This document shows positions 163 to 21,185 of a stretch of DNA of 23,891 nucleotides, piece by piece. The notes beneath the pieces were generated by a model, which was not told where the DNA came from, ran no database searches, and worked only from the letters and a program-made list of their open reading frames with translations. The translations under genes and the position numbers were made by a program. Positions within the stretch are counted from its first letter, which is position 1, and every line of letters starts with the position of its first letter. Source of the stretch: a virus; the IMG/VR virus record IMGVR_UViG_3300037488_001035, positions 1 through 23,891 of that record; one strand, 5' to 3'.

Positions 163-183
163 ATCTAACTCCTTGTACGTTAG

Positions 184-259
184 CCTTGATTGGTTTGTGC
201 CAGCAGGCGATCAAGGTTTCGCTTTTCAAGACGGATTATAAGTTCGTCTCTAGCTGACA
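184..259 (-). ncRNA. Structured 5' leader RNA, copy A (pseudoknotted, unclassified)
   Basis: Minus-strand RNA directly after promoter 265-293. P1 pairs TGTCAGC (253-259) with GCTGGCA (198-204). Inside P1 come TA, a 6-bp hairpin (GAGACG/CGTCTT), GAAAA, then P2 GCG/CGC (220-222 with 207-209). The P2 loop AAACCTTGAT holds CCTTGAT (210-216), which can pair with ATCAAGG (184-190) downstream, making a 7-bp pseudoknot. The ribosome binding site of the zinc-motif gene follows about ten bases later. The same architecture occurs at 18477-18544 with different helix sequences, which is the main evidence. No named RNA family is assigned. Confidence 0.65.
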
Positions 260-264
260 CTATT

Positions 265-293
265 ATTGTATCATAAATACCTCACAAAGTCAA
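265..293 (-). promoter_or_regulatory. Sigma70-type promoter for leader A and the broken zinc-motif gene
   Basis: On the minus strand the -35 box is TTGACT (288-293) and the -10 box is TACAAT (265-270), with a 17-base spacer. Transcription should begin near 259, exactly where the first strand of leader A's P1 helix starts. The promoter sits just past the end of the tail chaperone extension, so the downstream gene can be expressed apart from the structural operon. Confidence 0.75.
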
Positions 294-306
294 TGTTTAT
301 CTATGT

Positions 307-621
307 CTAAGACTTTTTACTACTCCGTAACCCTTCTGTCTTTGGTACATCTGATAATAGATTAACTCGTGAAATTTTCTTGTTTCCTTCTTGCCAGCTT
401 CGTGTTGTATACAAATCGTTATTTTGTGGCATAGCCCCTGTTCCCATAAGTTGTGATGGCATAAAATCTAAACGCTCAAGCGATTTTTCAAAAAGGTCAA
501 TAAAGCTATCTATCGGCATCCGTGCCAAGCTTTGCACGTCAAGTCCATGTAACATCAATTCAAGCGTCATTTCGTAAACAGTAGGAATCAGGACGGCTTT
601 TCCGTCTGATCCTTCACTGAG
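307..621 (-). CDS. Tail assembly chaperone, C-terminal extension made by -1 frameshift (lambda gpG-T-like)
   Basis: This frame is open from 651 to 307 and overlaps the end of the upstream chaperone. A slip at the A AAA AAC heptamer (621-627) would join the first 156 residues of that protein to 104 residues read here, giving a product of about 260 residues. The overlap, the heptamer and its place after the tail protein genes match the G/GT arrangement of lambda and many siphoviruses, where the long form helps load tail protein on the tape measure. An ATG at 570 lies in frame but has no visible ribosome binding site, so independent translation is less likely. The extension is polar, with a basic C-terminus (GLRSSKKS). 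Confidence 0.75.
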   Translation of the reverse strand, partial: LSEGSDGKAVLIPTVYEMTLELMLHGLDVQSLARMPIDSFIDLFEKSLERLDFMPSQLMGTGAMPQNNDLYTTRSWQEGNKKISRVNLLSDVPKTEGLRSSKKS

Positions 622-1088
622 TTTTTTTCTACCTTCTCCAATGGCACGAACTCACAAGTCACTACAACGCTAAACTTGGCATTTTTATTAGATTTCATAA
701 ACTTGTTGGCTTCGTCAATAACGCTCTGGAATTCCTTATAATCCTCTGTGGTAAATACCTTCCTATTCGGATCGTCTATTGTATCAGCAGACTTGCGAAT
801 CTCTGCAACTTGCTCTCTTGTCAATCTGGTATAACAATAGAGCATCTCATATCCAATCTCTATATCGTTATCCATAGTAATCTGCTTGGATATATCCTCT
901 TTGCTTACCTCTGGATTCTCACGTTTTTGCATTATCCACACTGCATTGACAAGCCCTTCGGATGTTTGCATAACGTCAAATATCTGTTGTGGTAAACGCT
1001 TGCCTGTTAGTTCGGATAACTCGTCAACTTCGCTTGCAGTAGCCTTCTCTGGTGTAACCTTTAATAATAATTCTGATAGTTTACTCAT
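588..1088 (-). CDS. Tail assembly chaperone (short form, lambda gpG-like)
   Basis: A protein of 166 residues, mostly helical and acidic, starting at ATG 1088 behind AAAAGGAGATC. I see no catalytic motif. The assignment rests on position (after the major tail protein and an HK97 gp10-like gene) and on a classic -1 slippery heptamer ten codons before its stop, which leads into the overlapping extension ending at 307. Phage tail chaperones of this size bind the tape measure protein and recruit tail tube subunits during assembly, and are absent from the finished virion. The tape measure gene is not in the window. It would be expected further left, past the inserted zinc-motif gene. Confidence 0.75.
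   Translation of the reverse strand: MSKLSELLLKVTPEKATASEVDELSELTGKRLPQQIFDVMQTSEGLVNAVWIMQKRENPEVSKEDISKQITMDNDIEIGYEMLYCYTRLTREQVAEIRKSADTIDDPNRKVFTTEDYKEFQSVIDEANKFMKSNKNAKFSVVVTCEFVPLEKVEKNSVKDQTEKPS
621..627 (-). promoter_or_regulatory. Programmed -1 ribosomal frameshift site A AAA AAC
   Basis: In the zero frame the codons are GAA AAA AAC, part of a run of seven A residues. Slipping back one base in both P and A sites preserves pairing (AAA to AAA) and places ribosomes in the frame ending at 307. This heptamer is among the most efficient -1 slippery sequences known in bacteria. It lies in the expected place for tail chaperone frameshifting. I did not identify a clear downstream stimulatory pseudoknot. 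Confidence 0.8.
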
Positions 1089-8133: not shown

Positions 8134-11100
8134 TTACTTCTCACAAACCGCCAACATCTGCGTTCCGAATACCTCTATCCTGTCAACCTTGAAATATTGT
8201 GACAATAACGTTCTAAAACTATCGGTATCAAAGAATCTCTTATGACTCCTGACAGCATTCTCACCAATCGGAACGCTTATCAATGCCAAACCTGACGGTT
8301 TCAATACTCTTTTAATTTCACTTAACACTTTATTGGTATCAACGACATGCTCTAAGACTTCACCAAGTATCACAGTATCATAAGTATCATCAAAGTATTT
8401 GAGTTCCTCCGCCCATCCTTGCGTAAAGTAAGCCTTCTTCTGTGCCTTCTCACTTGCTTTCTTGAGATTCTCATTCGCTCTGTCAATATGCTCTTGCAAC
8501 ATATCTATACCGATAACATTCAATCCCTTTTCAGCGATTAGGATAGTTGTTAAACCATCAGAACAACCTATATCTAGCGCGTTACGTGCAGAAAGCTCAA
8601 CTATCCTATCTATACGTGCCTTGATGTTCTCACGAGTTGGCTCATCCCATTCTACTAGGTTATGATAGACTTGGTATGATAGATCGCCCTTGAATCGTTC
8701 CTCTGCAAGCTGATCGTCTCTGGTAACAACCTCTTGAATTTTCTTGATACAGATACAAGCAAGGTGACTATCGAAATTACTTAATTCAGGTTTTATCTTA
8801 GTTCCCATGGTCCAATATTTACCAGTGAAGCATTTGTAAAATTCTGCTTGTATTAATTCACCGCCATTATTTTTACACCATTTCATTATCGAATCATCAT
8901 TAAATACATGACAAGGATAAGGATAATTCTGACCATAACCGGCGTCTGGTAGTTTGTAAACGTTTTCGATATAATCTATCTCATTATAAGGGAACGTCAA
9001 TATCAAATGCCCGCCCATATTCAACAACTTCATCATCTTTGAGATTGCCAAGTCTGGATCACGCATATGTTCTAATGCCGATACGCAGGTGAATACATCC
9101 GTATTCCCAACTATCGCTTTAGGATCGTGAATATCCACCTGCTGTATAAGCCAATGACGATTCAATACTCCTTCTGTCCAGTAATCCTTGAAATTGTCAA
9201 TCGCATGGACGATAAACCCCGAATGACGCATTAATGCTGGTAATGCGGAGGTGCCTGTACCCACGTCTATAATCTCGTTTGGCTCAATCTCATTCAGCAT
9301 TTTGAATATAAAGCTATACTCTACTGGTCTTGTATTCATATCAGCTTTTGACGATATACTCTGCTCGTATTCGTGCCTATTAATCTCATATAGAAACTGT
9401 TTACCTATGTCAACAGGATTAACCGGCATTAAGTTTCCAGTACCACGAATCTTGTTATAGAATTCGATTATCTTTGGTGCTTGGCTTTCCATAGTAAATG
9501 GTGGTATATTTGATACGTCAATATTTTTCAGTGTTTCGATATTTTCGATAATGTCGCCTGGGGTATCATAAATAATACCACAATTCAAGCGTTCAAGTTC
9601 TGCTTTCAGCGCCTTCGTATTGCAAGAGATAACAGGTAAGCCTGCCGCTAGATACTCATAGAACTTGTTACAGATTGCAATATCAAGAAATGCCCTATTT
9701 TTTTCGTTAATGGTAAAGGCTACGATACCAGCATCATATTGAGTCATTTCTTTGATTATCTCAGTTGGCAGTATCGGCTCGTAATAATGGAGATAAGGAC
9801 TGCTTTTTGCCCATTCTACATACTCAGGATTATATGTCGTTGGGTATATATGGACATGGATATGTGCTTCTGCAAGGGCAGAGAATAACGTATGATAATC
9901 CCTATGTGCCGAACCAACGCCACCTTCGTAAACGATATGATATTCACCATCCAGACTTGATAGTTTAGTTTTAAACTCATTCGCTTTTGGTATATCATCT
10001 TCTGAAACGTAATTTGAGATAACCATACTTTTATCTAAATCAATATCATACCTCGCCTTCGCATAAGTCATCATTTCATCAGAGACGTAAATCCTGCCAT
10101 TAGCTCCTGTGTTAGCAATTAGCTCATATAAATCCGTTGTCTGTGTGTCCTTCTCTAAGCCTCGTAGTGCTATCGGATCATGACAATCATGTATAACCAC
10201 CCCATGCGTAAGCAATGCAACTGTGAGTATGTCAGGCTCGTTATGGCTATGGATAATGTCGTATTGTGAAGCGAACTTCTGGAACTGTCCAATATCACCG
10301 ATCTGATAGACGTGATCATAGATTTCCTCGTCTTTGAGATGATAGAAATCAGAAGGCTTGCCATTGAGATATGCTAAATCAACAGTATGCCCGGCGGAAC
10401 GTAACGCCCTTGACATTTTGATATTCCTGATACAAGTAAATGGTTGCACCATCAGAATTTTGAGTTTCTCTGGTACTCCAATCTCTGGTGTATCAATAGC
10501 GCCTGTCATTACTTGATTCGTTATCATCAAGTTCTTATCATACATCTGGACATGACCACCAATTTCGATTGCCTTCTCATAGCATTTCTTGGCTTCTTTA
10601 TAATTCTCTTTATGTGAATAAGCCGTCCCGATATTGTTCCATGACTGATCTATGTTCTGAATAGTGTCCATAGTTGACTTTGAGAATATCTTGCCTTCAT
10701 TATACAGTGTAGCAAGCTCTATATGCTTTCTAAAATGCTCTATGGCATTATCAAGCTGATTGCAAGCAAGATAAGCACCTGCGATGAACTGATGGGCGTC
10801 AAGACACTTTGGCGACTTCTCTAATAATCTTTTACCTATCTCTATAACTTCATTCTCTTTACCATGACATGATTTTCCGAACATCAGGTCAATCATTAAT
10901 CCAGTCCATGCACATTCTGTATCTGAATTAAACTCAAACTTTGATAGTTTGTCTTCACATACCTCTACAAGCTCATCAACACGTTTTTGACAGCGATAAA
11001 TCCTTGCAAGGTTCATCCACGCATACCAATACTCAGGTTGCGATTCTAGTTGACGGAGTAATAAGGTTTCGGTACGTTTCCATTTAATAGCCATCTCCGC

Positions 11101-12327
11101 TTCTGTGAGATTATACCCGGAATGATACATCCGCAGATTAGTAATGACTGTCATGCCTTCCCATATCGGCTGATTATGGATAATATCTTTGTAGCCCGCT
11201 ATCTTTCGTCTAAAGAGTCTTGGTGAGTTCACCATTGACTTGTTGTTGGGTAAATCACTTAATACTTGGAACTGTATGCCATCATGTTCGTCAACATTAC
11301 AGATATGTCGCATTTTGCGTATATCTTCTTTTTCAAGATATTCGTCACTATCAATGATAAGCACCCAATCATCAGGTGAAACAGTCGAAAGTTCAATACA
11401 AGTATTCCGTGCCTCTGAGAAATCCCATGTCTCTTGTGTATAGACTTTCTGATGATAACTTGCCTTTGGATAATTCTTGAAGATTAGAGTATCTATGCCC
11501 TCTCTGGTATCAGTCTGCAATACCACGATCTCGTCAACTGCATCCTTTATACTGTCAAGGCATTTGATAAAGCTATCCTCATACTTATCATTCTCATTGA
11601 ATACGTTGCCAACGATAATACATGCGCTAATCTTTCTCAATCTTCCACCTGTGCCGATAAAGTCAAGGTTTTCGTCCCACCAAATAGGGTGAAACAAGAA
11701 ATGGTAAACCCTGCCATCTTCCATTGTCTCAATATGCTTTATAATGTCAACATCCGTCCATGCAGTATTCTGCTTATCATACTTGACCATCTTCCGTATA
11801 TGCCCGCCATTATCTGCAACGTAACCATCATTTTGACACTGAAAGTCAGGCGATAACAAAGGCTTGACTATGGCTGTTATCTTAGGATTCTGGCATATCT
11901 CAAGGTTTCCTGAATGTGGTACAATCGTTTTGAAGTCTACCTCTGAATATTCCTTCATATTACGGATAACCTCGTCAGCATCATTCGTGCAAGCATGATA
12001 ACCAATCTCATGATCACTACTCACCAGATAAAGCAAAGGATTTTCTTTGTAATATTTCTTTGCCATAACGTAACTGCTAGATACAATACCATATTCGCTT
12101 TCTAACGCTATCATCTTCTGGATGTTAGGCAAACACAAATCAGGCTTGCCTTCAAATCCACCTAGCCCAGTCGTTGGGTCAAGATCATGACGAATGACTA
12201 CAAAAGGTATATCCTGATACTCTATGCCATTTATTACTGAATCATTCCCGCAGGTTAATGCTTCATTTACAGTTCTCGAAATAGCCCCACGTTTTTTTAT
12301 CGCTTCTAGTATGTCTTTGTAATTCAA
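8134..12327 (-). CDS. Multidomain glycan enzyme: deacetylase-like, GT2, TPR, GT4-like, two methyltransferases
   Basis: One open frame of 1397 residues starting at TTG 12327 behind AAAGGAG. Domains in order: about 40-220 polysaccharide deacetylase-like (RHDLD 46-50, HEIGYH 106-111, PHSGN 137-141, FHPIWW 212-217); about 233-420 GT2 glycosyltransferase with DSD at 326-328; about 430-600 TPR-like helices (NNIGTAYSHKENYKEAKKCY); about 622-960 GT4-like glycosyltransferase (ILMVQPF, EGGVGSAHRDYHTL, KFYEYLAAGLPVI); about 1005-1200 class I methyltransferase (IIDVGTGTS, VSALEHM); about 1240-1397 a second methyltransferase (ALDIGCSDG 1250-1258, LGEVLEHV, LKPSG). Together these suggest synthesis and capping of a glycan, on the virion or on the host envelope. 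The gene lies between a FemAB-like transferase and another methyltransferase-like gene. I see no membrane segment. Fusion of this many activities in a phage gene is unusual. Confidence 0.8.
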   Translation of the reverse strand: MNYKDILEAIKKRGAISRTVNEALTCGNDSVINGIEYQDIPFVVIRHDLDPTTGLGGFEGKPDLCLPNIQKMIALESEYGIVSSSYVMAKKYYKENPLLYLVSSDHEIGYHACTNDADEVIRNMKEYSEVDFKTIVPHSGNLEICQNPKITAIVKPLLSPDFQCQNDGYVADNGGHIRKMVKYDKQNTAWTDVDIIKHIETMEDGRVYHFLFHPIWWDENLDFIGTGGRLRKISACIIVGNVFNENDKYEDSFIKCLDSIKDAVDEIVVLQTDTREGIDTLIFKNYPKASYHQKVYTQETWDFSEARNTCIELSTVSPDDWVLIIDSDEYLEKEDIRKMRHICNVDEHDGIQFQVLSDLPNNKSMVNSPRLFRRKIAGYKDIIHNQPIWEGMTVITNLRMYHSGYNLTEAEMAIKWKRTETLLLRQLESQPEYWYAWMNLARIYRCQKRVDELVEVCEDKLSKFEFNSDTECAWTGLMIDLMFGKSCHGKENEVIEIGKRLLEKSPKCLDAHQFIAGAYLACNQLDNAIEHFRKHIELATLYNEGKIFSKSTMDTIQNIDQSWNNIGTAYSHKENYKEAKKCYEKAIEIGGHVQMYDKNLMITNQVMTGAIDTPEIGVPEKLKILMVQPFTCIRNIKMSRALRSAGHTVDLAYLNGKPSDFYHLKDEEIYDHVYQIGDIGQFQKFASQYDIIHSHNEPDILTVALLTHGVVIHDCHDPIALRGLEKDTQTTDLYELIANTGANGRIYVSDEMMTYAKARYDIDLDKSMVISNYVSEDDIPKANEFKTKLSSLDGEYHIVYEGGVGSAHRDYHTLFSALAEAHIHVHIYPTTYNPEYVEWAKSSPYLHYYEPILPTEIIKEMTQYDAGIVAFTINEKNRAFLDIAICNKFYEYLAAGLPVISCNTKALKAELERLNCGIIYDTPGDIIENIETLKNIDVSNIPPFTMESQAPKIIEFYNKIRGTGNLMPVNPVDIGKQFLYEINRHEYEQSISSKADMNTRPVEYSFIFKMLNEIEPNEIIDVGTGTSALPALMRHSGFIVHAIDNFKDYWTEGVLNRHWLIQQVDIHDPKAIVGNTDVFTCVSALEHMRDPDLAISKMMKLLNMGGHLILTFPYNEIDYIENVYKLPDAGYGQNYPYPCHVFNDDSIMKWCKNNGGELIQAEFYKCFTGKYWTMGTKIKPELSNFDSHLACICIKKIQEVVTRDDQLAEERFKGDLSYQVYHNLVEWDEPTRENIKARIDRIVELSARNALDIGCSDGLTTILIAEKGLNVIGIDMLQEHIDRANENLKKASEKAQKKAYFTQGWAEELKYFDDTYDTVILGEVLEHVVDTNKVLSEIKRVLKPSGLALISVPIGENAVRSHKRFFDTDSFRTLLSQYFKVDRIEVFGTQMLAVCEK

Positions 12328-16808: not shown

Positions 16809-17387
16809 TTAAAATAAGTAGAATTGACCTGTTTTTTTGTCTGATGGCTGATCGGGTTGTTGACTTTCTATATTATTTTTATCCAATTCGTTCTGCATTG
16901 ACATTCTAATTTCATTCAACAATATATTGATTGGAATAGCAATATTGGAAGTTTTCCATGTGCTGTTATATGCAAACTTTCTGCCGTATTCCTTTAACCA
17001 GCAATGGTAGTTTTTAATCCAAACCTTTTGTAGCAATAAAAAAGGCAATAAATACAATAATTTAGCAGGCAATACAATATAGGCAATATAGTCAGTATAT
17101 TTCTCTTTACCTAGCCAACCAACAACTTTACGATCATAATCAGAGTATTCCTCTAACAATATATCTCCATACCATTTTCGTCTAATTTTCTCATCAACAA
17201 GAATGCGTTTTCCGCTATCAGTAATAAATATCTTGTCTATACCTTGCTTTTGTAGTTTTAGATCAGTAACTTTCTGTATATCCGATATATGCGGAAATAA
17301 CCGTTTATATACTAAATCAATAAATTGCTCGTTACTGGTGTCTAAAGAAAACTCTAAATCATCTTGAAAGTCATTTTTGATTCCCAT
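16809..17387 (-). CDS. PD-(D/E)XK-like nuclease, partner of the adenine methyltransferase
   Basis: A protein of 192 residues, ATG at 17387, overlapping the end of the methyltransferase gene by 17 bases. Residues 49-67 (GIDKIF, then KRILVDEKIR) fit the PD-(D/E)XK pattern, with Asp51 and an Asp65-Glu66-Lys67 triad on the next strand, followed by basic residues and a Trp/Tyr-rich part. A hydrophobic stretch near 105-120 (LPAKLLYLLPFLLLQ) is too short and interrupted to be a sure membrane segment. Coupling with a DNA methyltransferase suggests a restriction partner or a nuclease guided by methylation. Size is small for a type II enzyme but acceptable. The family call rests on the short motif only. 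Confidence 0.55.
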   Translation of the reverse strand: MGIKNDFQDDLEFSLDTSNEQFIDLVYKRLFPHISDIQKVTDLKLQKQGIDKIFITDSGKRILVDEKIRRKWYGDILLEEYSDYDRKVVGWLGKEKYTDYIAYIVLPAKLLYLLPFLLLQKVWIKNYHCWLKEYGRKFAYNSTWKTSNIAIPINILLNEIRMSMQNELDKNNIESQQPDQPSDKKTGQFYLF

Positions 17388-18456
17388 AGCTAAACCATCC
17401 TAATCGTTCATTTCTTGAAAACAGTTCTATATATTTTTTGTTTGGAAACATTGATTCAATCATACTATAATAATATTCTGGTTTCTTACTATGTTGTCCT
17501 CTTTTTTCATGAAATACCGATGAAAAACGATTTTCTACATCAGGGCACTTAGGATTACCTTTAACGCCTAGTAGCAATATTTCGTGCTGTTGTCGCCACC
17601 AGTACCCAAGACCGATTATTTCTTTATCCCATACTGAACAGGTACGGTATGTAAAACCCCACGCATTTAATACCAGCAGGGCTTCCTCTAGTTTTGGTGA
17701 GGTAGCCCATAATAATAGCACGCAATCTTTATCAGCAGGTATATCTAATGATTTAATTTCACCGAGATCCATGGTTGGATATTGGTTTTCTATTTCCCTG
17801 CTTGGTGATTCTGCAAACTCATATCTCCAGGGGGGATCGGCATAGATAACATCGAATAAACCATCAGGTATTGTTGGTTGAAAAGTTTGATCTTTAATCT
17901 CTTGTTGCTTTTCTTCACGTTGAATATCTTTATATGCCTTGTTGATCGTCAATTCACCATCACGTATTTTCTGGATTATCTCTGGTGAAGATTCTTTATC
18001 TATCTTCTCTATCTTGTCTAATGTCCTACCAGACATGCCTGCTTCTTCTGCTAACTGCTCTCTTGTATTAACTTTCTGTTCTGGTAATATTGCCAAAACA
18101 GATTCAGGCTTTCTTATCTGATTCTCTTTAGCTTTTAATGCAATTATATCTTTTTTCCTTAAAGATAATATGCCACTATCGTAAAGAGATAGATTCCGTC
18201 TGCCTCTTTGGTTATCAATTATCCATATTTCAGCATCGGCTCTGGAATCAAATTCTATCTCTCTGGTATCAAACTCAATCCCATGCTTTTGGCATAGATC
18301 ATACCTGTTGTGCCCATCAACGATAGTATCATTCCACACTTTCAGCGCATCTAAACACCCATGCGATAACAGGCTTTGCTCTAATGAATTATATTCTTCT
18401 GTCGTTAGTTTTGGTATCAAGTTTTGAAATTCTGTATCAATGGTAAGTTCGTTCAC
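17371..18456 (-). CDS. ParB-like / MT-A70 adenine methyltransferase fusion
   Basis: I start this at GTG 18456, since GGAGGT (464-469) stands seven bases upstream. An ATG at 18531 would lie inside the structured leader and has no ribosome site. The 361 residues hold a ParB/Srx-like N-terminal domain (about 1-100, with DGHNRY at 47-52), a helix-turn-helix-like segment near 133-155 (REQLAEEAGMSGRTLDKIEK), and an MT-A70 methyltransferase (about 198-361) with FDVIYADPPWRYEF (DPPW 207-210), LLLWATSP and EHEILL-type and ELFSR segments. It should transfer a methyl group from SAM to adenine N6 in DNA. Phages carry such fusions for self-protection. It has its own promoter and leader, and its end overlaps the nuclease gene. 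Confidence 0.85.
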   Translation of the reverse strand: MNELTIDTEFQNLIPKLTTEEYNSLEQSLLSHGCLDALKVWNDTIVDGHNRYDLCQKHGIEFDTREIEFDSRADAEIWIIDNQRGRRNLSLYDSGILSLRKKDIIALKAKENQIRKPESVLAILPEQKVNTREQLAEEAGMSGRTLDKIEKIDKESSPEIIQKIRDGELTINKAYKDIQREEKQQEIKDQTFQPTIPDGLFDVIYADPPWRYEFAESPSREIENQYPTMDLGEIKSLDIPADKDCVLLLWATSPKLEEALLVLNAWGFTYRTCSVWDKEIIGLGYWWRQQHEILLLGVKGNPKCPDVENRFSSVFHEKRGQHSKKPEYYYSMIESMFPNKKYIELFSRNERLGWFSYGNQK

Positions 18457-18476
18457 GATATGTACCTCCGTAGTAA

Positions 18477-18544
18477 TTCCGATGTAGTAGTTGCCAGCAG
18501 AACACTCGGAATGTGTTTTTTCATGTTGCAATCACTAGCTGGCA
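18477..18544 (-). ncRNA. Structured 5' leader RNA, copy B (pseudoknotted, unclassified)
   Basis: Minus-strand RNA that should begin at the first base of P1. P1 is TGCCAGC (538-544) with GCTGGCA (492-498). Inside come TA, a short GTG/CAT hairpin, GAAAA, then P2 AACAC/GTGTT (513-517, 501-505) with loop ATTCCGA. TTCCGA of that loop (506-511) pairs with TCGGAA (477-482) downstream, making a 6-bp pseudoknot. CT separates P2 from P1, as in copy A. The methyltransferase ribosome binding site GGAGGT follows seven bases on. Conserved parts versus copy A: P1, TA...GAAAA and CT. Differing but still paired: the inner hairpin, P2 and the pseudoknot. Confidence 0.7.
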
Positions 18545-18550
18545 TAGATA

Positions 18551-18579
18551 ATTATAGCATAAAAGTCAAAGATAGTCAA
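18551..18579 (-). promoter_or_regulatory. Sigma70-type promoter for the methyltransferase-nuclease pair
   Basis: On the minus strand the -35 box is TTGACT (574-579) and the -10 box is TATAAT (551-556) with a 17-base spacer. The predicted start is near 18544, the first base of leader B. It lies in the gap after the GHKL-HNH gene, so the pair can be expressed separately from that gene and from the late operon. Confidence 0.85.
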
Positions 18580-18593
18580 TGTTTCCACATTCC

Positions 18594-21185
18594 TCACAAT
18601 CTTGCAATTTCTAATTGTTGATGGAATAGCCCATGACAGGCTTTACAAAGTACGATTACATCACTATCTAGCTCTTCTCCTAGTCGGCTATAATCATTAT
18701 GATGCACATTCAAATTGTCTTTACTTTTACATAGAGAACAAAGATGATTTGATTGTTCTATTGCTTTTATTCGTATCCGTTTCCAATGTGGAGATTGAAG
18801 ATACTGATCGTAAAATGTTCCTTCTTTTCGTAATATGGATTTCCTAACCTGTATAGCCGTAATTGAACGACCTAATTTATTGGCTATTTCCTCTTCGGGT
18901 TTATGCCTTAATGTCATTACTATTAAAGTATCTTCATCGCCACGAGTCCATTTATCATCCCAGGGTTCATTATAAAAAGGCATCCATGAACACTCCGCCG
19001 ATGTATGCTGTCTGATAAACTTATCTTCATCCTCTATATCTGATTGACCATTCTCATAGAAACGTAGCGCCCCAAAGGCACTATGAACCAGAAGCTCTCT
19101 ATAATTTTTATCCATTCTATCTAATACAGGATCGTCATTAGCATATAATCTTTTAGCATATAAATGATCCCTATTATCCATATTGACATATACAAGAATT
19201 TGTCCTTGTGATTTATCAATATAAGCGCCACTACACTTATCAAAATTATGCTTTGCAAAGTCATTTTTATGAACTGGAACAACTTTATAATCAGGAATGC
19301 CTGTTTTTCTAGGAGGTCTTATTTCATCCCCATTGCCTGATATAGTTAGTTTATATGGGATAACTTTTACAAAAAAGTTCCCTGTAAACCTATTCCATCT
19401 TTGCGTAATAATTGAATATTTATACTCAATTAAGTCATCAATTTTTATCCCTTTTGGTAAGTCTAATACGATTACGGCTATTCCGCAATCATGTATATTG
19501 CCAGTTATAAACTTCATATTTTGAGGAAGAATCGAATCGGCAGTGCATACTGTATAAAATTCACCAGGGTCGTCCTCTCTATCAAAAAAATCCGATATGG
19601 CGTCTGTTTTTAGTCTAATCTGGAATTTCCGCCCTATCTCTACCAATTTTGGATTCTCTTTAGCATATTCTGTTTCTAGTTCAAATATCTCTGGATATAC
19701 TTGTTGCGTTATTGGTTCTTTATTACTTATCCCATTATCATCTAATACATATTCTATTTTTTTTCCATTAGCCAATTCACGGAAAGCTGGAACTTTAAGA
19801 AGACATTTGTCTAAATCATATTTTTCGTCTTGGTCAACAATATGACTTGATTTATCATCACGTAATTGTTCTGCTACCTTTATCAGACCTACATGATTAG
19901 TGAGTTCATACTCTAATTGTTCACGAATGGTTTTGGTATATTCGTTATCATAAAATCGGTTTCTATCCTGCATAAATACCTTCTCCTTAATTTGTGCAGG
20001 AAGACCCGTACAATCTACAAATACCTTAATATTATTCCTCAAAATACTAAGTCCAATATCTGTAAAAACCTTTGTCTCGAGGAAATGCTTTTTCTCTGTA
20101 TGGCGTGTCTGACCTGTATCAGTAAAGAAAACAATATCATCACCAGATGGGTACTTATAGCCCAATCCATTTTTGATTACAAATAACTGGTAAGTTACTT
20201 TATAATCGTTACACTTAATAAATCCAGTATAACTACAATACAAATCCTCTTTTTTATAATTAAGATCATTTTGTAATCCATATAAAACAAGTCCATAAGA
20301 ATTAGCTTTTCTATCCTCAACATAAATAGGAAGTCCAAAATTTGGAACTAATCTGTTTATATCAGATAAAATACTACTGTTTTTAACTTGATGATCTTCT
20401 TTGTTTGAAAAGCTTCGTATTCCTACGATTAGATATGCACTGCTCCGCACTTGATAACTAAACAACTTTATAATTGTATTATATCCGGTCTCAAATTCTG
20501 CATTGGTTTCTAATTCTTGTGGGATTAAATATTCATAAGAAGACAATTTCTCATTACCTTTAGGCTCGACACGCCTTGTGATAGTAAATCCCCAGGGATT
20601 AAGAGAATGGCATAACTCAGGGGCTATTCTTGATACTATCATTTTTAGACAATATTCACCAGCAAACTTTATTGAATTAGACCCGCCTGTGTTGTAAGTG
20701 CCTGTAACATAGGGTATTGACTTTTTATTACTATCGGTTACTGACAAAAACGTATTTTCAAATCTATTACAAGGCATTCCTATGCCTTGATCTAAAATCC
20801 ACATATCAGGTCTTTCTTTTGCCCCGCTTGATCTTAATACGGTTTTTTTGGCTAATATTAATCTATCTTTCGGTTCCATAAAACGGACATTCCCATTTTC
20901 TATTCCATAGAATTCTTTCATTGCTTCGTTAAAATCTTTAGGTATAACACCTAAAATTTTGGAATCTTTCATCGAATTTGCATCACGCCCATTAATAAGT
21001 AACTCTACTAAAGCAGACTCTCCATTTGGACAATCTCTCCCTACGTGAGAACCTGAATTAGCAACCCCGCCATAAGGTTGCCACTTTTCACTATCATTAT
21101 ATAATCCACAATCCTCAAGTAACTTTTTGGCTTCAATTTCACCATTCGCATTAAATAAATTCTGCACCAATTCTGTATAATTCAT
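18594..21185 (-). CDS. GHKL ATPase fused to Myb-like segment and HNH nuclease
   Basis: An 863-residue protein starting at ATG 21185 behind AAAGGAGATC. The N-terminal part (about 40-200) has GHKL ATPase motifs: N box ELLINGRDAN (Glu61, Asn65, Asp68), G1 DQGIG (132-136) and a G2-like TGTYNTGGSNS (161-171). The middle (about 200-700) has no recognised domain. Residues about 746-786 (WTRGDEDTL ... LGRSITAIQVRKS) look like a Myb/SANT-type DNA-binding helix set. The C-terminus (about 800-863) is an HNH nuclease: CSLC (816-819), NVHHNDY (826-832) and LCKACHGLFH. An ATP-driven clamp linked to a nuclease fits DNA restriction or defence functions, as in MutL- and MORC-like proteins. It sits upstream of the methyltransferase-nuclease pair but is not overlapping it. 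Confidence 0.8.
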   Translation of the reverse strand: MNYTELVQNLFNANGEIEAKKLLEDCGLYNDSEKWQPYGGVANSGSHVGRDCPNGESALVELLINGRDANSMKDSKILGVIPKDFNEAMKEFYGIENGNVRFMEPKDRLILAKKTVLRSSGAKERPDMWILDQGIGMPCNRFENTFLSVTDSNKKSIPYVTGTYNTGGSNSIKFAGEYCLKMIVSRIAPELCHSLNPWGFTITRRVEPKGNEKLSSYEYLIPQELETNAEFETGYNTIIKLFSYQVRSSAYLIVGIRSFSNKEDHQVKNSSILSDINRLVPNFGLPIYVEDRKANSYGLVLYGLQNDLNYKKEDLYCSYTGFIKCNDYKVTYQLFVIKNGLGYKYPSGDDIVFFTDTGQTRHTEKKHFLETKVFTDIGLSILRNNIKVFVDCTGLPAQIKEKVFMQDRNRFYDNEYTKTIREQLEYELTNHVGLIKVAEQLRDDKSSHIVDQDEKYDLDKCLLKVPAFRELANGKKIEYVLDDNGISNKEPITQQVYPEIFELETEYAKENPKLVEIGRKFQIRLKTDAISDFFDREDDPGEFYTVCTADSILPQNMKFITGNIHDCGIAVIVLDLPKGIKIDDLIEYKYSIITQRWNRFTGNFFVKVIPYKLTISGNGDEIRPPRKTGIPDYKVVPVHKNDFAKHNFDKCSGAYIDKSQGQILVYVNMDNRDHLYAKRLYANDDPVLDRMDKNYRELLVHSAFGALRFYENGQSDIEDEDKFIRQHTSAECSWMPFYNEPWDDKWTRGDEDTLIVMTLRHKPEEEIANKLGRSITAIQVRKSILRKEGTFYDQYLQSPHWKRIRIKAIEQSNHLCSLCKSKDNLNVHHNDYSRLGEELDSDVIVLCKACHGLFHQQLEIARL

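What the first reader, a model, noticed from the sequence alone, without database searches (positions are those of the whole stretch)
18464..18579. Promoter-linked pseudoknotted leader RNA before the methyltransferase, one of two covarying copies
The RNA is predicted to begin exactly at helix P1 (TGCCAGC/GCTGGCA). Compared with the copy at 184-259, P1, the TA...GAAAA frame, the CT linker and the distance to the -10 box are conserved. The inner hairpin (GTG/CAT versus GAGACG/CGTCTT), P2 (AACAC/GTGTT versus GCG/CGC) and the pseudoknot (TTCCGA/TCGGAA versus CCTTGAT/ATCAAGG) change in sequence and keep pairing. P1 itself has one C-to-U change that still pairs with G. Three covarying helices in two copies is hard to get by chance. 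The last strand lies just before the ribosome binding site, so translation control of cargo genes, perhaps by a ligand or as a ribozyme, is possible. I recognise no named class.
Basis: seen in the sequence. Interest (0 to 1): 0.88.

Follow-up and report, generated by a model that had tools for sequence, protein, structure and literature searches.

The report
Phage leader RNA, likely translation switch
Two short folded RNAs in this phage sit just before genes and belong to a barely studied RNA family (Rfam int-alpA) that turns out to be common in phages, where one loop is complementary both to a decoy strand and to the ribosome-binding site, so it probably switches protein production on and off.

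Summary
Both copies fold as described, and a descriptor of the fold finds exactly these two places in the window and none in 5.9 Mb of simulated sequence. It is not an unnamed class: Rfam places copy 184-260 in RF02996 int-alpA (37.0 bits, cut-off 35.8). The copy at 18464-18579 fails Rfam but scores E = 4e-5 with a model built without window sequences.

int-alpA is filed as an sRNA. Roughly 190 public loci show instead a leader that usually sits 25-45 nt before the start codon of very diverse phage and mobile genes. Three features beyond the core are new here: (i) the P3 loop is complementary to two strands, a proximal pseudoknot strand and the Shine-Dalgarno region (both in 76% of leaders versus 20% permuted; 83% versus 12% for loops unlike an anti-SD); (ii) the SD strand usually lies in the loop of a hairpin, P4; (iii) the P2 loop is self-complementary (6-nt palindromes 49.5% versus 6.4% shuffled; some exceptions carry GACG, the retroviral kissing tetraloop).

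Best reading: a portable cis-acting translational switch with two mutually exclusive pairings, probably homodimeric. Trigger unknown; nothing measured.

The parts
18551..18579 (-). promoter of copy 2: -35 TTGACT (18574-18579), 17 nt, extended -10 TATAAT (18551-18556); predicted start at or next to the first base of P1
   Evidence: 11 of 12 consensus positions; sequence
18492..18544 (-). copy 2 core: P1 18538-18544/18492-18498; UA 18536-18537; P2 hairpin 18523-18535; GAAAA 18518-18522; P3 18513-18517/18501-18505; CU 18499-18500
   Evidence: R2 model 25.9 bits, E 4.2e-5
18526..18531 (-). P2 loop palindrome UUGCAA of copy 2 (proposed self-kissing loop)
18506..18512 (-). P3 loop AUUCCGA of copy 2, complementary to two downstream strands
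18477..18482 (-). proximal pseudoknot strand UCGGAA of copy 2
18465..18470 (-). distal strand CGGA(G) overlapping the Shine-Dalgarno sequence CGGAGG of copy 2; weak P4 hairpin UAC-GGAG-GUA at 18463-18472
   Evidence: sequence
17371..18456 (-). gene controlled by copy 2: ParB-like N-terminus plus MT-A70 DNA methyltransferase, GUG start 18454-18456
   Evidence: Pfam MT-A70 2.5e-24; PHROG 359 2.7e-55 and ParB-like 1.8e-14
265..293 (-). promoter of copy 1: -35 TTGACT, 17 nt, extended -10 TACAAT
197..260 (-). copy 1 core: P1 253-260/197-204; P2 228-250 with loop palindrome UUAUAA 236-241; GAAAA 223-227; P3 219-222/207-210
   Evidence: Rfam RF02996 37.0 bits; R2 35.4 bits
184..190 (-). proximal pseudoknot strand AUCAAGG of copy 1 (pairs loop CCUUGAU 210-216)
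165..183 (-). P4 hairpin of copy 1, CUAAC/GUUAG, with distal strand CAAGG (171-175) and SD AAGGA in its loop
3..161 (-). gene controlled by copy 1: start of an ORF with a CxCGC...GH N-terminus, cut by the window end (endonuclease-like by eye only)
   Evidence: no Pfam or PHROG match

Best explanation
Both RNAs are 5' leaders of the int-alpA class (RF02996) and act in cis as translational switches for the gene that follows. The three-way junction (P1, P2, P3 with conserved UA, GAAAA and CU joints) presents the P3 loop as a private anti-Shine-Dalgarno. In one state the P3 loop pairs with the proximal decoy strand after P1, so the SD in the P4 loop is free and the gene is translated. In the other state the same loop bases pair with the SD strand and block initiation. 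The P2 loop lets two leaders kiss, so the working unit is probably a dimer. Shown from sequence: the core fold, covariation, double complementarity, P4 and loop self-complementarity. Inferred: which state is ON, dimerisation, and that an unknown signal acting on the conserved junction sets the balance.
For: Rfam match for copy 1 and for 16 homologous copies across 14 of 15 scanned loci. Core covariation score 0.64 versus 0.14 +/- 0.02 shuffled; 12 of 14 pairs change on both sides; sliding the strands destroys it. P3-loop complement of at least 4 nt at both the proximal strand and the SD region in 76% of 117 leaders versus 20 +/- 3% with permuted loops; 83% versus 12% for the 29 unique loops without CCU or UCC. 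The two complements share at least 2 loop bases in 88 of 89 leaders, so they exclude each other. Pairing energies are close: median difference 0.4 kcal/mol; window copies -8.7/-6.5 and -7.8/-5.8. P4 region MFE -3.8 versus -1.8 shuffled, p = 5e-11, distal strand 81% unpaired where a hairpin forms. Six-nt palindromes in P2 loops 49.5% versus 6.4%, 11 different ones; an E. coli and Pseudomonas type carries GACG, a known self-kissing tetraloop. One planctomycete genome holds copies each with its own private loop, proximal and distal strands.
Against: No expression, probing or binding data. The distal complement of copy 2 is only 4 bp (5 with a G-U pair) and its P4 is weak. Nested folding of the full copy 2 leader prefers another fold. 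About 13% of P2 loops have neither a 4-nt palindrome nor GACG. No ligand or protein partner can be named. In many genomes the RNA lies between genes without its own promoter, so a start at P1 is not general.
Confidence: 0.7

Rival explanations
1. A constitutive translation enhancer or mRNA-stabilising 5' structure: the core plus proximal pseudoknot simply insulates the SD from upstream sequence, and no switching occurs.
For: Very diverse downstream genes with no common pathway; portable promoter-leader-gene units; proximal pairing slightly stronger in both window copies.
Against: A mere insulator gives no reason for the P3 loop to stay complementary to a private distal strand overlapping the SD in 92% of unique loops versus 43% permuted.
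Confidence: 0.13
2. A trans-acting small RNA, as Rfam files int-alpA ('Gene; sRNA').
For: Rfam type label.
Against: Nearly all copies lie about 25-45 nt before a start codon on the same strand and pair with their own SD region; no terminator was found near the window copies.
Confidence: 0.06
3. A leader bound by the downstream protein itself (autogenous control, as for T4 gp32).
For: Precedent of a phage pseudoknot leader bound by its gene product (PMC3014915).
Against: The same core stands before at least 55 Pfam families in 88 genes; nearly identical leaders precede unrelated ORFs.
Confidence: 0.04
4. A self-cleaving ribozyme.
For: Compact pseudoknotted three-way junction with an invariant joint.
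Against: No known ribozyme model matches, and conservation of SD complementarity is not explained.
Confidence: 0.03

Closest known systems
Rfam RF02996 int-alpA RNA
   Same: Same three-way junction, CUA / GAAAAGCG / CGCCUG core and tail strand; copy 1 scores above the gathering threshold; E. coli copies lie between int and alpA-type genes.
   Different: Copy 2 lacks the GCG/CGC P3 and is below the Rfam report limit. The Rfam model as printed by cmscan does not show P4, the second SD complement or loop self-complementarity, and types the RNA as an sRNA. The original description was not held, so whether it drew the pseudoknot could not be checked.
RBS-sequestering hairpins of phage homing endonucleases (T4 I-TevI and segB, Aeh1 mobE; PMC3014915)
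   Same: Phage leader that restrains translation of an often selfish nuclease gene; some homologues here precede GIY-YIG, HNH or Seg-like endonucleases.
   Different: Those are local helices over the RBS without this conserved fold, decoy strand or pseudoknot, and are described there for single genes.
Translational riboswitches with SD-pairing pseudoknots or kissing loops (preQ1-III, glutamine-II, guanidine-II; PMC7357161 and own knowledge)
   Same: Conserved junction plus loop-SD pairing as output; some crystallise as dimers through loops or pseudoknots.
   Different: No ligand known; gene set is not metabolic; two explicit alternative strands for one loop; different fold and sequence.
T4 gene 32 leader pseudoknot (PMC3014915)
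   Same: Phage 5' pseudoknot that controls translation.
   Different: Single gene, bound by its own product; different structure.
Retroviral dimer initiation loops (HIV-1 DIS palindrome, MoMuLV GACG tetraloops; PMC7357161)
   Same: Palindromic or GACG apical loops that self-kiss.
   Different: Genome dimerisation in animal viruses; here only inferred from loop sequences.

Membership tests
RF02996 int-alpA | score at or above the gathering threshold (35.8 bits) | tested here: met
   copy 1: 37.0 bits
RF02996 int-alpA | same threshold for the copy in the finding (18464-18579) | tested here: not met
   no RF02996 match at E <= 10; so copy 2 is called a divergent homologue, not an Rfam member
int-alpA class in the wider sense (model R2, no window sequences) | core sequence-structure model | tested here: met
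   copy 1 35.4 bits, copy 2 25.9 bits (E 4.2e-5), next hit 8.4 bits
int-alpA class in the wider sense | P3 loop - tail pseudoknot with covariation | tested here: met
   both window copies; 86% versus 32% permuted
RF02996 int-alpA | location between int and alpA | tested here: not met
   window copies precede an MT-A70 methyltransferase and an endonuclease-like ORF; the location holds only for some E. coli copies
riboswitch | specific ligand binding by the conserved core | not testable with these tools
   needs binding assays
riboswitch | mutually exclusive structures coupled to the SD | tested here: met
   as sequence potential only
homodimeric RNA | self-complementary apical loop | tested here: met
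homodimeric RNA | dimer in solution | not testable with these tools
   needs native gels or ultracentrifugation
self-cleaving ribozyme | match to a known ribozyme model | tested here: not met

The most novel reading that the evidence does not exclude
A general phage control element that senses its own transcript level: as phage genomes and transcripts multiply, leaders kiss through the P2 palindromes, the dimer shifts the P3 loop from the decoy strand to the SD (in the same or the partner molecule), and translation of that one gene is capped. Private palindromes and loops in each paralogue would keep leaders from cross-talking.
Probability: 0.15. Interest if true: 0.92.

Novelty: new variant of a known kind. 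Interest (0 to 1): 0.74.

Why it matters
A class filed as an obscure sRNA appears to be a widespread, portable translation-control module of phages, satellites and prophages in at least Pseudomonadota, Planctomycetota, Actinomycetota, Bacillota, Chloroflexota and Nitrospirota. It stands before replication, nuclease, methyltransferase, tail and accessory genes. The duplicated complement makes ON and OFF states predictable for any copy, so the mechanism is directly testable with a reporter. Palindromic loops that differ between paralogues in one genome would be a rare natural case of a bacterial mRNA leader that dimerises, and the element could also be useful in synthetic biology.

Tried and rejected
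blastn of the copy 2 region against named phages: no match. Rfam on copy 2 alone: only chance snoRNA hits. First pattern with the window's own P1: 2 of 11 loci real. Relatives of the window's own genes: one distant methyltransferase locus and none for the copy 1 ORF, so conservation at orthologous positions could not be tested. Idea that the conserved UAG is the stop codon of the upstream gene: one case in 109, rejected. Idea that the RNA is specific to homing endonucleases, suggested by L007 and L009: rejected after the wider scan. The genome search first pass missed the copy in the window itself because of its filter. Pattern for AC-type P3: 120 mostly chance loci, one real. Papers: int-alpA in one open paper as a table entry only, RF02996 in none; the 2017 source paper is not held.

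Full report
WHAT WAS CHECKED. The window is a 23.9 kb tailed-phage record from IMG/VR with SPP1-type portal, SU10-type capsid and head morphogenesis genes, on the - strand. Both leader RNAs are on the - strand as described. A strict descriptor (P1 of at least 5 bp around UA/CU, P2, GAAAA, P3 of at least 4 bp, pseudoknot of at least 5 bp) finds exactly the two copies in the window, 0 hits in 4.42 Mb of simulated locus sequence and 0 in 1.43 Mb simulated from the window. In about 1 Mb (2.02 Mb counting both strands) of mostly unrelated viral sequence a relaxed form finds one, which looks genuine. Promoters with 11/12 and 10/12 consensus matches, the same 17-nt spacer and extended -10 boxes sit directly upstream; the start of the RNA at P1 is thus likely within 2 nt, inferred.

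WHAT IT IS. Rfam assigns copy 1 to RF02996 int-alpA at 37.0 bits (gathering 35.8) and does not report copy 2. A covariance model made without window sequences (R2) scores copy 1 at 35.4 bits and copy 2 at 25.9 bits (E 4.2e-5); the next hit in the window has 8.4 bits. The core shows strong covariation: 12 of 14 pairs with changes on both sides, score 0.64 against 0.14 shuffled and at most 0.13 when strands are slid. P3 itself varies (CCGA/UCGG, CUG/CAG, GGGG/CCCC types), so the AACAC/GUGUU of copy 2 is within the range of the class. Copy 2 is called a divergent homologue, not an Rfam member.

DISTRIBUTION AND CONTEXT. With model R1 at E <= 1e-4, matches occur in 9 of 200 sampled genomes of the phylum of a Zoogloea (Pseudomonadota), 8 of 149 Planctomycetota (three of the eight, G004, G007 and G008, were already known to be positive), 2 of 150 Actinomycetota (one of them the seed) and 1 of 200 Bacillota (the seed itself). 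Named carriers include Edwardsiella GF-2, Enterobacter Tyrion, Salmonella BIS08P22, Pseudomonas phPA-G, several Vibrio phages, Rhizobium RHph_X2_25 and deep-sea phage D6E. The RNA mostly lies about 25-45 nt before a start codon. 88 distinct downstream proteins hit 55 Pfam families, among them DUF1376 (other members hit PHROG replication initiators), HNH, AP2, NUMOD3, methyltransferases, tail tube and chaperone proteins, integrase and YhcG nuclease. In E. coli islands it lies right after int and before an uncharacterised gene ahead of a small helix-turn-helix regulator, which fits the Rfam name. 82 of 109 copies follow a co-directional gene ending a median 14.5 nt before P1, while about 20 have a -10-like box 10-11 nt before P1. 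Nearly identical leaders precede unrelated ORFs in enterobacterial phages, so leader and gene behave as exchangeable modules.

THE NEW OBSERVATION: ONE LOOP, TWO PARTNERS. In 117 non-redundant leaders the P3 loop is complementary (at least 4 nt, Watson-Crick) to a proximal strand in 86% (permuted 32%), to the SD region in 88% (permuted 46%) and to both in 76% (permuted 20 +/- 3%, maximum of 200 permutations 29%). This is not merely anti-SD composition: for the 29 unique loops without CCU or UCC, both are present in 83% against 12%. The two complements use overlapping loop bases in 88 of 89 cases and thus exclude each other; median spacings are 9 nt (P1 to proximal), 13 nt (proximal to distal) and 7 nt (distal to start codon). 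Energies of the two pairings are close (median difference 0.4 kcal/mol; copy 1 -8.7 and -6.5, copy 2 -7.8 and -5.8). Planctomycete genome G004 shows the logic within one genome: loops CUAGC, CUGUC, CUGAC, CUCUGA and CCUCUGA each meet their own repeated partner, e.g. UGACAGcauacuuuUGACAGGag. A hairpin P4 presents the distal strand in its loop (region MFE -3.8 against -1.8 shuffled, p 5e-11). In the window: copy 1 AUCAAGG then CAAGG inside P4 CUAAC/GUUAG; copy 2 UCGGAA then CGGA at a weak P4.

SECOND NEW OBSERVATION: SELF-COMPLEMENTARY P2 LOOPS. 82% of distinct P2 loops contain a 4-nt palindrome (36% shuffled) and 49.5% a 6-nt one (6.4% shuffled, maximum 12.8%), with 11 different hexamers, among them UUGCAA (copy 2) and UUAUAA (copy 1). 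Six of the exceptions carry GACG, the tetraloop by which gammaretroviral hairpins kiss each other (PMC7357161). Because the palindromes change while self-complementarity stays, kissing dimers are the simplest reading. It remains inferred; loop conservation for another reason (for example a UNGCN pentaloop fold) is not excluded for the short loops.

MECHANISM. Committed view: a bistable cis-acting translational switch, probability 0.7. Steps shown by sequence statistics: fold, covariation, position before the gene, two exclusive complements, P4, palindromes. Steps inferred: loop-proximal = ON, loop-SD = OFF; dimerisation; an unknown signal read by the UA/GAAAA/CU junction. A passive insulator (0.13), trans sRNA (0.06), autogenous protein control (0.04) and ribozyme (0.03) are less likely for the reasons given in the rivals.

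KNOWN OR NEW. The class has a name but, in the open papers searched, no function (the source paper is not held). The window copies are one regular and one divergent member. The reinterpretation as a widespread translational switch with a decoy SD strand and probable dimerisation appears new, with the reservation that closed-access papers could not be searched.

Noticed in passing
18594-21185 (-): 863-aa ORF with a C-terminal HNH domain (PHROG 119, 1.1e-8) and, by eye, an N-terminal GHKL-ATPase-like motif (ALVELLINGRDAN, DQGIGM); looks like cargo between head genes.
   Followed up: partly
16809-17387 (-): 192-aa ORF after the methyltransferase with a PD-(D/E)xK-like stretch by eye (ILVDEKIR); no Pfam, PHROG or PADLOC match. 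Possibly a partner nuclease of the methyltransferase.
   Followed up: partly
L021 4621-4676: Rfam GP20-b RNA (RF03003, 50.6 bits) at the end of the contig whose start carries an int-alpA copy; two orphan phage RNA classes next to each other if the contig is circular.
   Followed up: no
L431 (G007 contig 35, 165-216 and 285-336): Two int-alpA-class RNAs in tandem, 120 bp apart, in a planctomycete genome that holds about eight copies.
   Followed up: no
L029, L042, L054, L066, L086, L118: Enterobacterial phages with nearly identical leaders (loop AUCGUCA) but unrelated downstream ORFs: the leader looks like a recombination joint for gene exchange.
   Followed up: partly
L424-L433 (G004, G007) and L173: Planctomycete copies precede ORF6N/antirepressor-like and YhcG nuclease genes, i.e. 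phage-derived mobile genes.
   Followed up: partly
307-1088 (-): Two adjacent ORFs (166 and 87 aa) in the position of tail assembly chaperones, with a T-rich run between them; a programmed frameshift is possible.
   Followed up: no
8134-12327 (-): 1397-aa multidomain ORF with glycosyltransferase- and methyltransferase-like parts (by eye) within a phage structural region.
   Followed up: no
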